NCBI RefSeq assembly: GCF_003054055.1
Contig: NZ_QBKI01000001.1
Span: 310,001 to 374,000, forward strand
Direction of reading: 5' to 3'
DNA: 64,000 nt
Origin: Pontibacter mucosus
GTDB lineage: Bacteria > Bacteroidota > Bacteroidia > Cytophagales > Hymenobacteraceae
The notes under the pieces are model-generated. The model had not been told where the DNA came from. It saw only the letters and a program-made list of their open reading frames with translations, and made no database searches. The stretch's first letter is position 1. Every line of letters begins with the position of its first letter. Made by a program: the position numbers and the translations under genes. Positions 1 to 64,000 of this stretch are shown here, piece by piece.

Positions 1-2058
1 ACCATCGGCAACCATACCTGGCGGCTCTATATAACAGCAAAGGAAGGTTTCGGGCGCACCACCGAGTCCGAGCTACCATACTACATACTTTTAGGCGGCA
101 GCATCATCAGCCTGCTGATGTTCTTCATTATCTGGTCGCTGTCTAACACACGGCGCTCCAACAGCCTCAAGCAAACCATCACCGACAACGCCACCGCGGC
201 TCTGTTTATACTTGACTCGAAGGGGTACTGCACGTTTATGAACCCCGCCGCAGAGGAGATGACAGGCTATACGCTGGAGGAAATGCGCAAAAAGCCGCTG
301 CACGACATGGTGCACTACAAGCACCTGGACGGCTCGCCTTTCCCGGCAGAGGAGTGCCCCATGCACAATGCCCTGACCAACATAAAGCCCCTGAGGGGCT
401 ACGAGGACACCTTCGTCCGCAAAGATGGCACCTTCTTTAACGTGTCGTGCTCGGTGCAGCCCATGGTGGAGAGCGGCAGCGATAACTATACCATTATAGA
501 AGTGCGCGACATTACCGACGAGAAGCAGGCACAGCAGGCTATCATCGAAAGCGAGGCCCGCTTCCGCACCATGGCCGACAACGCCCCGGTGATGATCAAG
601 ATCATGGACGACGCCACCAACTTCATGTATGTAAACAAGCAGTGGCTCGACTTCACGGGCCATACCTTTGAGCAGACCATCAACATGAGTTGGAAGGAGC
701 TGGTGCACCCCGACGATATAGACCGCAAGGAGCAGGTAACCCTGCAGGCCATAGAAGACCACAGCCCCTTCCGGCTGGAGTACAGGATGCGGCGCTTCGA
801 CGGGGAGTACCGCTGGGTGGTGGCCTCCAACACGCCACGCTTCGGTGCCAACGGGGAGTTTCAGGGCTACATCGGCTCCATCATCGATATCACGGAGATA
901 AAAGAGGCGGAGCGCAAGGTAAAGCAGAACGCCGAGCTGTTGCAGAAGCTGTTCCTGGAGGTGCCGGCTGTAGTAGGCCTGGTGCGCGCCCAGGATTACC
1001 AGTATGTGCTGGCCAACCCGGGCTACCGCAAACTCTACGGCAACCGCCCGCTGGTGGGCAGAACAGTTTTCGAGGTTCATTCGGAGGAGGAAGGCCGCGA
1101 GCTTATTAACCGTCTGGATGAGGTGTTCCGGACAGCGAAACCATTTGTGGGCAACGAGATTCCGATACCTGCTGTAGAGCGCGGCAACAACGGAGAGCTT
1201 GCTCATGGCTATTTTAACCTGGTGTACCAGCCGCTGGTAGACGCCAACGGAGCGGTAGAGGCCGTGCTAATATTTGCCGTAGAGGTAACCGAGCTGGTAA
1301 ATGCCAGAAAGGCCCTGCTGCACACCAACGAGGAACTGAGCGGCAAAAACGACGAGCTGCAGCGCATCAACAACGACCTGGACAACTTCGTGTATACGGC
1401 TTCCCACGACCTCAAGTCGCCGATAGCCAACATGGAGGGCCTGGTAACGCTGCTGCGCGACATCCTGCAGGGCAAGCTGGAGGCTGAGGACATGCAGGTG
1501 CTGGACATGGTGCAGAGCTCTATCAACAAGCTAAAAGGCACCATCGCCGACCTGGCCGAGATTACCAAAGTGCAGAAGGAGCTGCAGTCGGCCGCCGAGC
1601 CGCTCTCATTTGAAAGCATGCTGCAGGATATCGGCGCTGACCTGGAAGAGCCCATGAAAGAAACCGGCGCCGTGCTGAAGACAGACCTGCAGGTAGGAAG
1701 CATCGTGTATGCCCGCAAGAACCTGCGCAGCATCATCTACAACCTGGTCAGCAACGCCATCAAGTATAAATCCCCGAACCGCCCACCCGTTATCCACCTG
1801 AAAACCTACGAGCAGGGAGAGTATGTGGTGCTGGAGGTGCAGGACAATGGCCTTGGTATTAAGAAAGAGCAGCAGCACAAGCTGTTCACCATGTTCAAGC
1901 GCCTTCACACGCACGTGGAGGGCACCGGCATCGGCCTGTATATCGTCAAGCGCATTATAGAGAACAACGGCGGCAGGATAGAGGTAGATAGCGTGCACGG
2001 CAAAGGCACCACCTTTAAAGTATATTTCAGGCAAGTACCTGTAGAGCAGGAAGTATAA
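1..2058 (+). CDS. Multi-PAS sensor histidine kinase (5'-truncated by window)
   Basis: The reading frame is open from base 1, so the N-terminus lies outside the window; 685 residues are visible. They begin with the tail of a probable extracytoplasmic sensor region (CHASE-like, a guess), then one membrane helix (visible residues about 29-47). Three PAS/PAC modules follow (about 55-170, 185-300 and 305-420). A HisKA domain has the phospho-acceptor His at visible residue 469 in ASHDLKSP. The HATPase_c domain shows the N box NLVSNAIKYK (581-590), G1 DNGLGI (615) and G2 GTGIGL (641). The protein should autophosphorylate in response to a ligand or redox cue sensed by the PAS domains. No receiver domain and no response regulator follows, so its partner is unknown. 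It ends 75 bases before radA. Confidence 0.9.
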   Translation, partial: TIGNHTWRLYITAKEGFGRTTESELPYYILLGGSIISLLMFFIIWSLSNTRRSNSLKQTITDNATAALFILDSKGYCTFMNPAAEEMTGYTLEEMRKKPLHDMVHYKHLDGSPFPAEECPMHNALTNIKPLRGYEDTFVRKDGTFFNVSCSVQPMVESGSDNYTIIEVRDITDEKQAQQAIIESEARFRTMADNAPVMIKIMDDATNFMYVNKQWLDFTGHTFEQTINMSWKELVHPDDIDRKEQVTLQAIEDHSPFRLEYRMRRFDGEYRWVVASNTPRFGANGEFQGYIGSIIDITEIKEAERKVKQNAELLQKLFLEVPAVVGLVRAQDYQYVLANPGYRKLYGNRPLVGRTVFEVHSEEEGRELINRLDEVFRTAKPFVGNEIPIPAVERGNNGELAHGYFNLVYQPLVDANGAVEAVLIFAVEVTELVNARKALLHTNEELSGKNDELQRINNDLDNFVYTASHDLKSPIANMEGLVTLLRDILQGKLEAEDMQVLDMVQSSINKLKGTIADLAEITKVQKELQSAAEPLSFESMLQDIGADLEEPMKETGAVLKTDLQVGSIVYARKNLRSIIYNLVSNAIKYKSPNRPPVIHLKTYEQGEYVVLEVQDNGLGIKKEQQHKLFTMFKRLHTHVEGTGIGLYIVKRIIENNGGRIEVDSVHGKGTTFKVYFRQVPVEQEV

Positions 2059-2090
2059 TTTCAGATTTGAAGATGAGGGATTGGCAGATA

Positions 2091-2129
2091 GCTCATTCCC
2101 TACTCACTCATTCACTCATTCAAAATTAT
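2091..2129. repeat. CACTCATTC-type intergenic repeat
   Basis: The spacer before radA carries tandem copies of the word (CA)CTCATTC ending in CAAAATT. The same words, in inverted arrangement, flank the spacer at 42164-42294. Seen directly; the function is unknown. Confidence 0.5.
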
Positions 2130-2133
2130 CCAA

Positions 2134-62094: not shown

Positions 62095-62124
62095 AGAAGA
62101 AGGAGGGCACACTACCCTCCTTCT
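62095..62124 (-). terminator. Terminator of the ribonucleotide reductase gene
   Basis: Stem AAGAAGGAGGG/CCCTCCTTCTT around CACACTA, followed on the minus strand by CTTTTC; it lies just after the minus-strand gene that ends at 62133. Confidence 0.75.
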
Positions 62125-62132
62125 TTAGTTAT

Positions 62133-64000
62133 TTACGATCCGCAAGCTTCGCAAGCGTCTGGGTTGTCTAGCGAGCAAGCCATGTCGTTGCGGTTTTGGT
62201 CTTGTTGGTTGTAGACCGGCGAAAGGGTTTCGGCGGCTTGTTTCTCTACGGTAAACTTAATGGCGTCTACAGCGGCTTTGGTGCGCAGGTAGTACATACC
62301 CGTCTTAAGGCCCTTCTTCCAGGCGTGGAAGTGCATCGAGGTCAGCTTGCCGAAGTTTACGTTCATCACGTGCAGGTTCAGTGACTGGCTCTGGCAGATA
62401 TAGGCGCCACGGTCGGCACTCATATCGATAACGGTACGCTGGCTGATTTCCCAAACCGTTTTGTACAGGTCCTTGATGTTCTGCGGGATGTTGGGTATAT
62501 CCTGAACAGAACCGTTAGCCGCGATGATATCATTTTTCATCTTATCGTTCCAGATGCCCAGGTTAATCAGGTCGCGCAGCAGGTGCTTATTCACCACCAT
62601 AAACTCACCGGACAGTACGCGGCGCAGGTAGATGTTGGAAGTATAAGGCTCAAACGATTCGTTGTTGCCCAGGATCTGCGCGGTAGAGGCGGTAGGCATC
62701 GGCGCTACCAACAGTGAGTTGCGCACACCGTGCTTCACCACTTCCTGGCGCAGGCTGTCCCAATCCCAACGGCCGCTCTCCGGTGTTACGCCCCACAGGT
62801 CAAACTGGAATTTGCCTTCCGACAGCGGAGAACCCTTGAAGGTCTCGTATGGGCCCTGCTTCTTCGCCAAATCCTTAGAAGCGGTCATGGCCGCAAAGTA
62901 GATGGTCTCGAAGATATCCTTGTTCAGTCCGCGTGCCTCCTCGCTCTCGAACGGCATGCGCAGGTGAATAAAGGTATCGGCCAGTCCCTGCACACCCAAG
63001 CCAATCGGACGGTGGCGCAGGTTAGAGTTCTGAGCCTCTGGTACCGGGTAATAGTTGATGTCGATAACCTTGTTCAGGTTAACCGTGGCATGGTAGGTTA
63101 CATCAAACAGCTTCTGGTGGTCGAAGGTCTTGTTGCCATGCTCGTCCTCTTTTACAAAGCGAGGCAGCGCCAGCGAGGCCAGGTTACACACGGCAATCTC
63201 GTCCTTACTGGTGTACTCCATAATCTCGGTGCACAGGTTCGAGCTCTTGATGGTGCCCAGGTTCTGCTGGTTAGACTTGCGGTTGGCGTGGTCTTTATAC
63301 AGCATGTATGGGGTACCGGTCTCGATCTGAGACTCCAGGATATGGAACCACAGGTCCTGCGCTTTCACGGTTTTGCGGGCGCGGCCCTCGCGCTCATACT
63401 TCTCGTAGAGGCGCTCAAAGTCCTTGCCCCAGCACTCGCCCAGGCCCGGTGCTTCGTTCGGGCAGAACAGGCTCCAGTCGCCGTTTTCCTCCACGCGTTT
63501 CATAAACAGGTCTGGCGTCCAGAGGGCGTAGAACAGGTCACGGGCGCGGTTTTCTTCCTTGCCGTGGTTCTTCTTCAGCTCCAGGAAGTCGAAGATGTCG
63601 GCATGCCATGGCTCCAGGTAAATGGCGAAGGCGCCTTTGCGCTTGCCACCGCCCTGGTCCACGTAGCGGGCCGTGTCGTTGAACACCTTCAGCATCGGGA
63701 TGATACCGTTAGAAGTGCCGTTGGTGCCCTTGATGTAAGAACCAGTGGCACGCACGTTGTGGATGCTCAGGCCAATGCCGCCGGCGCTCTGCGAGATCTG
63801 CGCGCACTGCTTCAGGGTATCATAGATGCCCGGAATGCTGTCGTCCTGCATGGTGAGCAGGAAGCATGAGGAGAGCTGCGGCTTCGGTGTACCAGCGTTA
63901 AATAATGTTGGGGTGGCGTGTGTAAACCACTTCTCGGACATGAGGTTATAAGTCTCAATGGCAGATTCGATGTCCTCCTTGTGGATACCCACGGCCACAC
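62133..64000 (-). CDS. nrdA: Ribonucleoside-diphosphate reductase, class Ia alpha subunit (5'-truncated by window)
   Basis: The frame is open to the window edge; 622 C-terminal residues are visible. Catalytic landmarks are LSSCFLLTM with its Cys, GGIGLSIHNVRATGSYI, NLCTEI and PMPTASTAQILGNNESFEP. The C-terminal tail is DNPDACEACGS, with the redox Cys pair used to re-reduce the active site. It converts ribonucleotides to deoxyribonucleotides with the radical-bearing beta subunit (nrdB), which is not in the visible part. The sequence resembles the eukaryote-like class I alpha of Bacteroidota, and the terminator at 62095 follows it. The N-terminal ATP-cone, if present, lies outside. Confidence 0.95.
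   Translation of the reverse strand, partial: VAVGIHKEDIESAIETYNLMSEKWFTHATPTLFNAGTPKPQLSSCFLLTMQDDSIPGIYDTLKQCAQISQSAGGIGLSIHNVRATGSYIKGTNGTSNGIIPMLKVFNDTARYVDQGGGKRKGAFAIYLEPWHADIFDFLELKKNHGKEENRARDLFYALWTPDLFMKRVEENGDWSLFCPNEAPGLGECWGKDFERLYEKYEREGRARKTVKAQDLWFHILESQIETGTPYMLYKDHANRKSNQQNLGTIKSSNLCTEIMEYTSKDEIAVCNLASLALPRFVKEDEHGNKTFDHQKLFDVTYHATVNLNKVIDINYYPVPEAQNSNLRHRPIGLGVQGLADTFIHLRMPFESEEARGLNKDIFETIYFAAMTASKDLAKKQGPYETFKGSPLSEGKFQFDLWGVTPESGRWDWDSLRQEVVKHGVRNSLLVAPMPTASTAQILGNNESFEPYTSNIYLRRVLSGEFMVVNKHLLRDLINLGIWNDKMKNDIIAANGSVQDIPNIPQNIKDLYKTVWEISQRTVIDMSADRGAYICQSQSLNLHVMNVNFGKLTSMHFHAWKKGLKTGMYYLRTKAAVDAIKFTVEKQAAETLSPVYNQQDQNRNDMACSLDNPDACEACGS

What the first reader, a model, noticed from the sequence alone, without database searches (positions are those of the whole stretch)
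1..64000. AAGTATA(A/G/C)/TATACTT is a massively over-represented dispersed word on both strands, in and between genes
Seen directly: in 36541-38040 (1.5 kb), a hand count gives nine sites of AAGTAT(A/G) or its complement (36586, 36595, 36765, 36847, 36875, 37110, 37285, 37977, 37998). Random expectation for these 7-mers on both strands is about 0.4. Similar density is visible across most of the window. The word is read in all six frames inside conserved genes: K-Y-K (AAG TAT AAA), S-I (AGT ATA), Q-V-Y (CAA GTA TAC), F-I-L (TTT ATA CTT), V-Y-F (GTA TAC TTT), Y-T (TAT ACT T). It therefore cannot be a protein-level preference and appears selected or inserted at the DNA level. Comparable known cases are cyanobacterial HIP1 and the DNA-uptake sequences of Neisseria and Haemophilus. 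I know of no report for Cytophagales. It is sparser in glyA (one copy in 1.3 kb), sparse in the IPT-repeat gene and absent from the Abi gene.
Basis: partly seen in the sequence, partly recalled or inferred. Interest (0 to 1): 0.93.

Follow-up and report, generated by a model that had tools for sequence, protein, structure and literature searches.

The report
Genome-wide DNA word with species dialects
Most of 50 Pontibacter species examined carry thousands of copies of one seven-letter DNA word, the word differs between species like a dialect, and its copies are kept in place better than ordinary DNA, likely because a still unidentified DNA-uptake or recombination system favours DNA that carries it.

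Summary
AAGTATA occurs 172 times in the window (4.9 expected) and 11,818 times in the 5.23 Mb genome (reversed word: 333). The genus is Pontibacter. Of 50 species, 20 use AAGTATA, 12 AGGTATA, 5 AACTATA, and 2 mix AAGTATA with AACTATA; in small samples one uses ATATATA and one weakly GGGTATA; 9 have no dominant word.

In coding DNA, 37-59% of the peptide contexts that could encode the local word do so (7-8% in word-less species), and proteins have shifted towards such contexts. Between sister species the local word ranks first or second among all 7-mers for keeping; other dialects' words are little or not protected. Loss is suppressed, so mutation alone cannot explain it.

I favour a drive tied to DNA uptake or recombination, working like Neisseria DUS. 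It cannot be filed as one: no type IV pilin or pilus-platform hit in 50 genomes. Copies are clustered and isolated copies are kept no better than crowded ones, which argues against a simple uptake model. Evidence from second contigs is mixed. Two methyltransferase families and a ComEA-like protein do not track the word. The recognising protein is unknown.

The parts
1..64000 (.). 172 copies of AAGTATA (109 on +, 63 on -), mean gap 365 bp; extended form (A)AAGTAT(A/G)V(A), V = not T
5346..6291 (+). stretch between two genes with eight AAGTATA, an example of the dense gaps
   Evidence: positions; gene limits
3534..3547 (+). two AAGTATA head to tail with a 7-bp period (also 6109-6122, 13892-13905, 15256-15269, 60928-60941)
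   Evidence: 7-bp pairs are in excess (10 against 2.7 over 284 kb)
4293..4302 (.). AAGTATACTT, two words face to face and overlapping (also 47590-47599, 55498-55507, 60962-60971)
16812..22916 (+). TIG/IPT-repeat secreted protein gene, word-poor (4 in 6.1 kb)
23042..25245 (+). glyA and tatC, no AAGTATA
61232..61990 (-). Abi_C-domain gene, no AAGTATA
38919..39995 (+). peptide chain release factor 1 (PCRF and RF-1 domains), anchor for the 50-species comparison of the surrounding DNA

Best explanation
AAGTATA in this Pontibacter genome is the local dialect of a short DNA word that occurs thousands of times and whose copies are kept between sister species better than other 7-mers of like composition, and it is likely held there by a drive in which an unidentified DNA-uptake or recombination protein prefers DNA bearing the word. 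Shown: the enrichment, the dialects with a shared TATA, in-place switching of dialect, protein sequences shifted towards the word, and protection of chiefly the local word. Partly shown: fewer words on second contigs of two of three genomes and in one island. Inferred: that the preference acts during uptake or recombination of related DNA (ComEC and a ComEA-like protein are found in all 50 species, intact in most), so that alleles with the word replace alleles without it. Also inferred: that a change of specificity in one recognising protein moves the whole genome to a new dialect, and that loss of the preference lets the words decay. The recogniser would have to be something other than a type IV pilin.
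For: Enrichment genome-wide and balanced on both strands. Strong enrichment only in this genus of six in the family (204 genomes). Five dialects in a 20-kb region, the same dialects in a second region in 40 of 40 genomes fetched there, and genome-wide support for AGGTATA and AACTATA (ATATATA and GGGTATA were not counted genome-wide). All share TATA, and the next base is T in only 0-5% of sites in four dialects (12% in G035). Two genomes hold two dialects at once, as one Neisseriaceae genome does (PMC3630211, section read). In-place swap: where AAG genomes have the word, the AGG clade has AGGTATA in 7.6% and AAGTATA in 1.6% of cells. Keeping is above control in 10 of 10 word-bearing pairs. Against local divergence the own word is kept 1.9-2.2 times expectation, other dialects' words 0.6-1.4 times. 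Loss suppression and occupancy give overlapping scaled strengths, about 1.2-2.9 and 2.1-2.9 (hand calculation). In G021, whose ComEC and ComEA-like genes are both frameshifted, words show the highest one-off-to-kept ratio of its 12-species clade. Species with strong words have smaller genomes (rho -0.67; not corrected for phylogeny).
Against: No type IV pilin N-terminus (0 of 50) and no T2SS/T4P platform protein (0 of 50), while the DUS receptor ComP is a pilin (recalled; ComP as receptor in a listed abstract). Spacing is clustered, not even, and keeping does not depend on the distance to the next word (permutation p 0.42), whereas uptake of kb-long fragments predicts redundancy. Species without a dominant word have ComEC and the ComEA-like protein too. 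G040 and G038 have broken ComEC but strong words, and G001 shows decay with open comEC and ComEA-like frames. The second contig of G001 is about as rich as its weak chromosome (20, 4 and 12 per 20 kb). The margin of the word over unrelated well-kept 7-mers is narrow. The ComEA-like protein does not co-vary with dialect. DUF5689, a Riemerella transformation family, does not track the word. Transformation of Pontibacter was not tested here, and no listing showed it.
Confidence: 0.47

Rival explanations
1. A site-autonomous repair or conversion bias: a protein that recognises the word (for example a modification enzyme with directed mismatch repair, as proposed for HIP1) tips each mismatch at the site towards the word, independently of neighbouring copies.
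For: Keeping is independent of the distance to other copies. Copies are clustered rather than spaced. Enrichment is nearly the same in coding and non-coding DNA once composition is allowed for, 29x and 33x. HIP1 also has alternate words in some genomes (PMC4390886, abstract and first part of section 3.4).
Against: Beta-class methyltransferases (PF01555) are missing in 14 of 41 word-bearing species. PF07669 has some hit in 47 of 50, but strong hits (E < 1e-20) in only 20 of 41 word-bearing and in 4 of 9 word-less species. The word is not a palindrome. Second contigs of G020 and G002 are poor although they share the cell, but they may be recent arrivals. Other methyltransferase classes were not searched.
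Confidence: 0.24
2. The word is the local Chi sequence: it stops an AddAB/RecBCD-type nuclease and starts recombination, and its dialects follow changes in that enzyme.
For: Short, non-palindromic, species-specific; fewer copies on second contigs of two of three genomes.
Against: No polarity with replication: in G020 the strand ratio does not flip with GC skew. Copies every few hundred bp would be redundant for Chi, yet crowded copies are kept as well as isolated ones. Enrichment of about 35x is above what I recall for any Chi. AddAB/RecBCD genes were not searched.
Confidence: 0.1
3. Each copy is a binding site for an abundant DNA-binding protein (chromosome structure or regulation), and each copy carries its own small fitness gain.
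For: Site-autonomous keeping; AT-rich word; close pairs in excess.
Against: Present in all six reading frames with nearly equal enrichment in genes and gaps; 9 of 50 species live without a dominant word; dialect switching would have to reshape thousands of independent sites for fitness reasons.
Confidence: 0.13
4. A purely mutational hot spot that keeps creating AAGTATA.
For: Very high density, including in genes.
Against: A hot spot raises gain but leaves loss normal. Loss of words runs at 0.17-0.51 of the control rate in 22 of 24 genomes, 0.67-0.68 in the other two; 10 of 10 pairs show protection. Most one-letter neighbours in the three main dialects lie at or above expectation; the lowest are 0.3 (AACTGTA in AAC species) and 0.4 (AGGTTTA in AGG species).
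Confidence: 0.03

Closest known systems
DNA uptake sequences (DUS) of Neisseriaceae
   Same: Thousands of copies of a short non-palindromic word on both strands; species dialects with a conserved core; a genome with two dialects at once; words highly conserved in more permissive surroundings (PMC3630211 abstract and section 'DUS dialects'; PMC2397512 passages; here).
   Different: No type IV pilin or platform hit in any of 50 Pontibacter genomes; clustered copies with no sign of redundancy; absence from acquired DNA only partly seen; competence and uptake preference not shown.
Uptake signal sequences (USS) of Pasteurellaceae
   Same: Over-represented word; graded enrichment of forms that resemble it (PMC1939737 passages; here).
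   Different: The paper's passages speak of even spacing and of one sequence bound at a time; here close pairs are in excess.
HIP1 and alternate HIPs of cyanobacteria
   Same: Dispersed word at about one per kb or denser, replaced by other words in some genomes (PMC4390886).
   Different: HIPs are palindromes tied to methyltransferases; here the word is asymmetric and two methyltransferase families tested do not track it.
Chi sites
   Same: Asymmetric 5-8-mers, species-specific (recalled).
   Different: No replication polarity; far denser (recalled comparison) and not redundant.
Natural transformation of Riemerella (Bacteroidota)
   Same: ComEC plus a helix-hairpin-helix protein, without homology of several essential genes to known uptake machinery; R. 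columbina prefers its own DNA in competition (PMC8459023 and PMC7965970, passages and sections).
   Different: Riemerella's top 7-mers are about 2 to 2.5 times a base-composition expectation. Its DUF5689/outer-membrane pair was not established in Pontibacter: DUF5689 hits occur in 17 of 41 word-bearing and 5 of 9 word-less species.

Membership tests
DUS/USS | short asymmetric word strongly over-represented on both strands genome-wide | tested here: met
   11,818 copies against 333 for the reversed word; balanced strands
DUS/USS | dialects between related species with a shared core | tested here: met
   five dialects sharing TATA; two of them supported genome-wide besides AAGTATA
DUS/USS | the word itself is conserved while its surroundings are permissive | tested here: met
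   kept above control in 10 of 10 pairs; identity within 30 bp of words below the overall value in 22 of 22 comparisons
DUS/USS | scarce in recently acquired DNA | tested here: inconclusive
   of seven 20-kb samples from second contigs of three genomes, four are near background (1, 2, 4, 6 copies) and three are 4-12-fold enriched (11, 12, 20); one island is poor (7 copies); plasmid nature inferred from size
DUS/USS | uptake through type IV pilus machinery with a pilin receptor | tested here: not met
   PF07963 0 of 50 (controls 8 of 14); PF00482 0 of 50 (controls 13 of 14)
DUS/USS | even spacing or redundancy within kb-long fragments | tested here: not met
   excess of close pairs; keeping independent of neighbours
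DUS/USS | the word enhances DNA uptake in a competent cell | not testable with these tools
   needs transformation assays
HIP1 | palindromic word | tested here: not met
   AAGTATA, AGGTATA and AACTATA are not palindromes; the AAC dialect only leans to AACTATAGTT
HIP1 | associated DNA methyltransferase in genomes that carry the word | tested here: inconclusive
   PF01555 and strong PF07669 hits do not track the word; other classes not searched
Chi | recognised by AddAB/RecBCD | not tested
   no enzyme search made
Chi / KOPS | orientation follows replication direction | tested here: not met
   13 G020 loci with positive and negative GC skew show no flip of the weak strand bias

The most novel reading that the evidence does not exclude
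Pontibacter runs a genome-wide word drive that needs no pilus: one fast-evolving DNA-recognition protein of a kind not yet described converts near-matches across the chromosome, copy by copy and without redundancy, into its current seven-letter word. It is strong enough to change protein sequences, and a change in its specificity re-dialects thousands of sites in place, isolating species genetically.
Probability: 0.35. Interest if true: 0.95.

Novelty: new variant of a known kind. Interest (0 to 1): 0.88.

Why it matters
Uptake words are best known from Neisseriaceae and Pasteurellaceae, where uptake uses type IV pili, and the HIP1 word of cyanobacteria has no settled explanation. Here one genus shows what looks like the whole life cycle of such a word: established dialects, two species with two dialects, changed specificity, weakening and absence. 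The strength of the force can be read in two ways that roughly agree. The lack of redundancy between copies separates uptake-of-fragments models from site-by-site conversion models and makes that argument testable with culturable bacteria. The word may also mark foreign DNA and show which species exchange genes.

Tried and rejected
Type IV pilus receptor: rejected, no pilin or platform hit in 50 genomes. Beta-class and Eco57I-type methyltransferases as the cause: not supported (PF01555 missing in 14 of 41 word-bearing species; PF07669 with some hit in 47 of 50 but strong hits in 20 of 41 word-bearing and 4 of 9 word-less). Riemerella-type DUF5689 receptor: 22 of 50 genomes hit, 17 of 41 word-bearing and 5 of 9 word-less. 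I read 13 of the 22 loci: 12 hold proteins of about 410-440 aa (eight beside a SusD-like gene, judged by eye) and one a long multidomain protein; in four AGG species (G003, G012, G019, G039) the gene is followed by a gene that starts like a TonB-dependent receptor with a carboxypeptidase-regulatory-like segment (by eye), superficially like the Riemerella pair; not followed up. The other nine hits, 1099-1295 aa frames, were seen by length only. ComEA-like helix-hairpin-helix protein as the specificity determinant: 2 of 311 columns AGG-specific and 1 of 311 AAC-specific, below 10 and 8 of 12 control proteins. Purely mutational origin: rejected. Replication polarity: not found; a local strand bias in intergenic DNA (212:106 over 21 RF1-region loci) remains unexplained. 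Higher density in gaps as a sign of selection in gaps: dropped, because composition explains it (29x coding, 33x non-coding). Comparable words elsewhere in Bacteroidota: none in the L107-L152 loci of at least 12 kb, the highest about 10-fold (AAGATCA in L138); weaker words in some Hymenobacter-type loci not followed up. Literature: searches 6 (the word itself: 1,650 papers, 40 listed), 10, 11, 38, 39, 42, 43, 53, 79 and 91; no listing showed a report of such a word for Pontibacter, but the listings were capped and the library lacks most subscription papers.
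Full report
What was checked. The window holds 172 AAGTATA (109 on +, 63 on -) against 4.88 in dinucleotide shuffles, and AAGTATA, a piece of it or an extension of it is the most over-represented word at every length from 6 to 11. 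All nine hand-counted sites are right. The genome, 5.23 Mb in 23 contigs, has 5911 + 5907 copies against 169 + 164 for the reversed word, one per 443 bp. The preferred form is (A)AAGTAT(A or G)(not T)(A).

Where it occurs. In the genus, 50 genomes range from 770 to 11,818 AAGTATA. In 154 genomes of five other genera of the family it is near the reversed-word control, at most about 2.5-fold in one genus.

Dialects. I took up to 20 kb around the release factor 1 gene from the 49 other species (12.5 kb for G008) and compared them with the window. The top words were AAGTATA in 20 species (weak in G001), AGGTATA in 12, AACTATA in 5, a mixture of AAGTATA and AACTATA in G013 and G045, ATATATA in G035, weak GGGTATA in G041 (16 against 2.1), and no dominant word in 9. 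'No dominant word' is not zero: G017 still has 2,905 AAGTATA against 723 for the control, and G014, G027, G036 and G037 about twofold. On a tree of 11 proteins (midpoint root) the AGGTATA species form one clade and the AACTATA species with the two mixed ones another. A second region, 10-16 kb around the ComEA-like gene, gave the same dialects in 40 of 40 genomes; the other ten were fetched only as short pieces. Genome-wide ARSTATA counts minus AAGTATA give 7,283-11,253 in the AGG clade and 15,560-16,359 in the five AAC species (subtraction); the same subtraction gives 1,841-5,211 in the nine species without a dominant word, which is the background. ATATATA and GGGTATA were not counted genome-wide. 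The base after TATA is T in 0-5% of sites in four dialects and 12% in G035.

Force on the sequence. Coding DNA of this genome (236 predicted genes) holds 364 words against 29.5 +/- 2.8 after synonymous shuffling, and 37% of the 995 peptide contexts able to encode the word do so. In 12 orthologous proteins (19 AAG, 5 AAC, 12 AGG and 9 word-less species; mixed ones, G001, G035 and G041 left out) the share is 39%, 59% and 44% for the own word, against 7-8% in word-less species. The number of compatible peptide contexts per kb is itself raised for the own word: AAGTATA 4.48 in AAG species against 3.34-3.66 in the three other groups, AACTATA 4.80 in AAC species against 2.40-3.11, AGGTATA 3.94 in AGG species against 2.45-2.94. 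Allowing for composition, enrichment is 29-fold in coding and 33-fold in non-coding DNA.

Maintenance. In 10 of 10 word-bearing sister pairs the word is kept more often than 7-mers of equal GC, for example 0.67 against 0.21 for G007/G010 and 0.88 against 0.46 for G040/G042; two word-less pairs show no such keeping, on few words. Ranked against local divergence over all 7-mers with at least 60 aligned occurrences (16 pairs), the own word is first in AGG (of 3,234), first in AAC (of 600, level with one unrelated 7-mer at 2.12) and second only to its own one-base shift in AAG (of 5,934; both orientations listed). The margin is narrow: unrelated 7-mers reach 2.17 with few occurrences and 2.08 with many in AAG. 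Own words are kept 1.9-2.2 times expectation; other dialects' words 0.6-1.4 times (for example AGGTATA in AAG species 0.18 against 0.30, AAGTATA in AAC species 0.52 against 0.37); AAGTATG is protected in AAG species (0.60 against 0.31). Pairs were scored in both directions, so these counts are not independent. Relative loss rates of 0.17-0.51 in 22 of 24 genomes correspond to a scaled strength of about 1.2-2.9, and the occupancy odds to about 2.1-2.9 (my calculation with the standard fixation formula). A mutation hot spot alone would not suppress loss.

Switching and decay. At AAG word positions, AGG-clade genomes have AGGTATA in 7.6% and AAGTATA in 1.6% of aligned cells; at AGG positions, AAG genomes have AAGTATA in 11.1% and AGGTATA in 4.3%. 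G021 and G001 are losing words: relative loss 0.67 and 0.68, and one-off per kept word 0.81 and 0.65, against 0.12-0.47 in the ten others of their clade. In G021 both comEC and the ComEA-like gene are frameshifted; in G040 comEC has a frameshift and an internal gap and the ComEA-like gene a stop, with words still strong; in G038 comEC is frameshifted and words are strong. G001 has open frames for both. The link between competence loss and decay is therefore suggestive only.

Independence of copies. Next-neighbour spacing shows an excess of close pairs (7 bp: 10 against 2.7; 9-20 bp: 47 against 30.3). Among 1,930 word observations in 12 species pairs, the chance of being kept did not depend on the distance to the nearest other word (permutation p 0.42). 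Neisseria DUS spacing matches conversion-fragment length and uptake sequences have been described as evenly spaced (passages), so this is a real difference.

Where it is missing. Thirteen 20-kb samples of the G020 chromosome hold 24-61 words each except one low-GC island with 7. Second contigs of 74-204 kb: G020 11 and 1, G002 2 and 6, G001 20, 4 and 12 per 20 kb. Against composition the 11, 20 and 12 are 4-12-fold enriched, and G001's values are close to its weak chromosome average of 16. Strand bias does not follow replication.

Machinery. ComEC is found in 50 of 50, with breaks in three, and a protein resembling ComEA by its helix-hairpin-helix repeats in 50 of 50, broken in two. No type IV pilin start or platform protein was found in any. 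In Riemerella, of the same phylum, transformation needs ComEC, a helix-hairpin-helix protein and proteins of unknown type (PMC8459023), and R. columbina prefers its own DNA (PMC7965970). Methyltransferase families PF01555 and PF07669 do not track the word. The ComEA-like protein does not co-vary with dialect.

Verdict. The word works like an uptake-sequence dialect system and shares most of its sequence-level features, but it cannot be filed as DUS/USS because the pilus machinery and even spacing were tested and not met and uptake could not be tested. I commit to an uptake- or recombination-coupled drive at 0.47, with a site-autonomous repair or conversion bias as the main rival.

Noticed in passing
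L180 (G020:C1:3200001-3220000): A low-GC island in an AAGTATA genome holds 15 AGGTATA (2.2 expected) and only 7 AAGTATA, as if acquired from an AGG-dialect species.
   Followed up: partly
L294, L295, L298 (comEC of G021, G040, G038): comEC is disrupted in three genomes and the ComEA-like gene in two of the same three, which suggests the two act in one pathway.
   Followed up: partly
L093, L102, L166, L167, L097, L106: Some loci of Hymenobacter and of one unnamed sister genus (handle g4) have their own moderately enriched words: CTACCCC, AGCTAGC, ACCTAGG, TAGGCCA.
   Followed up: no
50 Pontibacter genomes: Word strength in 20 kb falls with genome size (rho -0.67); the 11 weak or word-less species average 5.7 Mb against 4.6 Mb, not corrected for phylogeny.
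   Followed up: partly
window and L058-L068; RF1 region of 21 loci: Intergenic AAGTATA favours one strand about 2:1, without flipping with GC skew in G020; unexplained.
   Followed up: partly
L030 and L263 (G049): G049 carries strong AAGTATA and also raised AACTATA (20 in 20 kb, 10 in 16 kb), perhaps a trace of another dialect.
   Followed up: no
L200-L203 (G003, G019, G012, G039): A DUF5689 protein is followed by a gene that starts like a TonB-dependent receptor, superficially like the Riemerella transformation pair.
   Followed up: no
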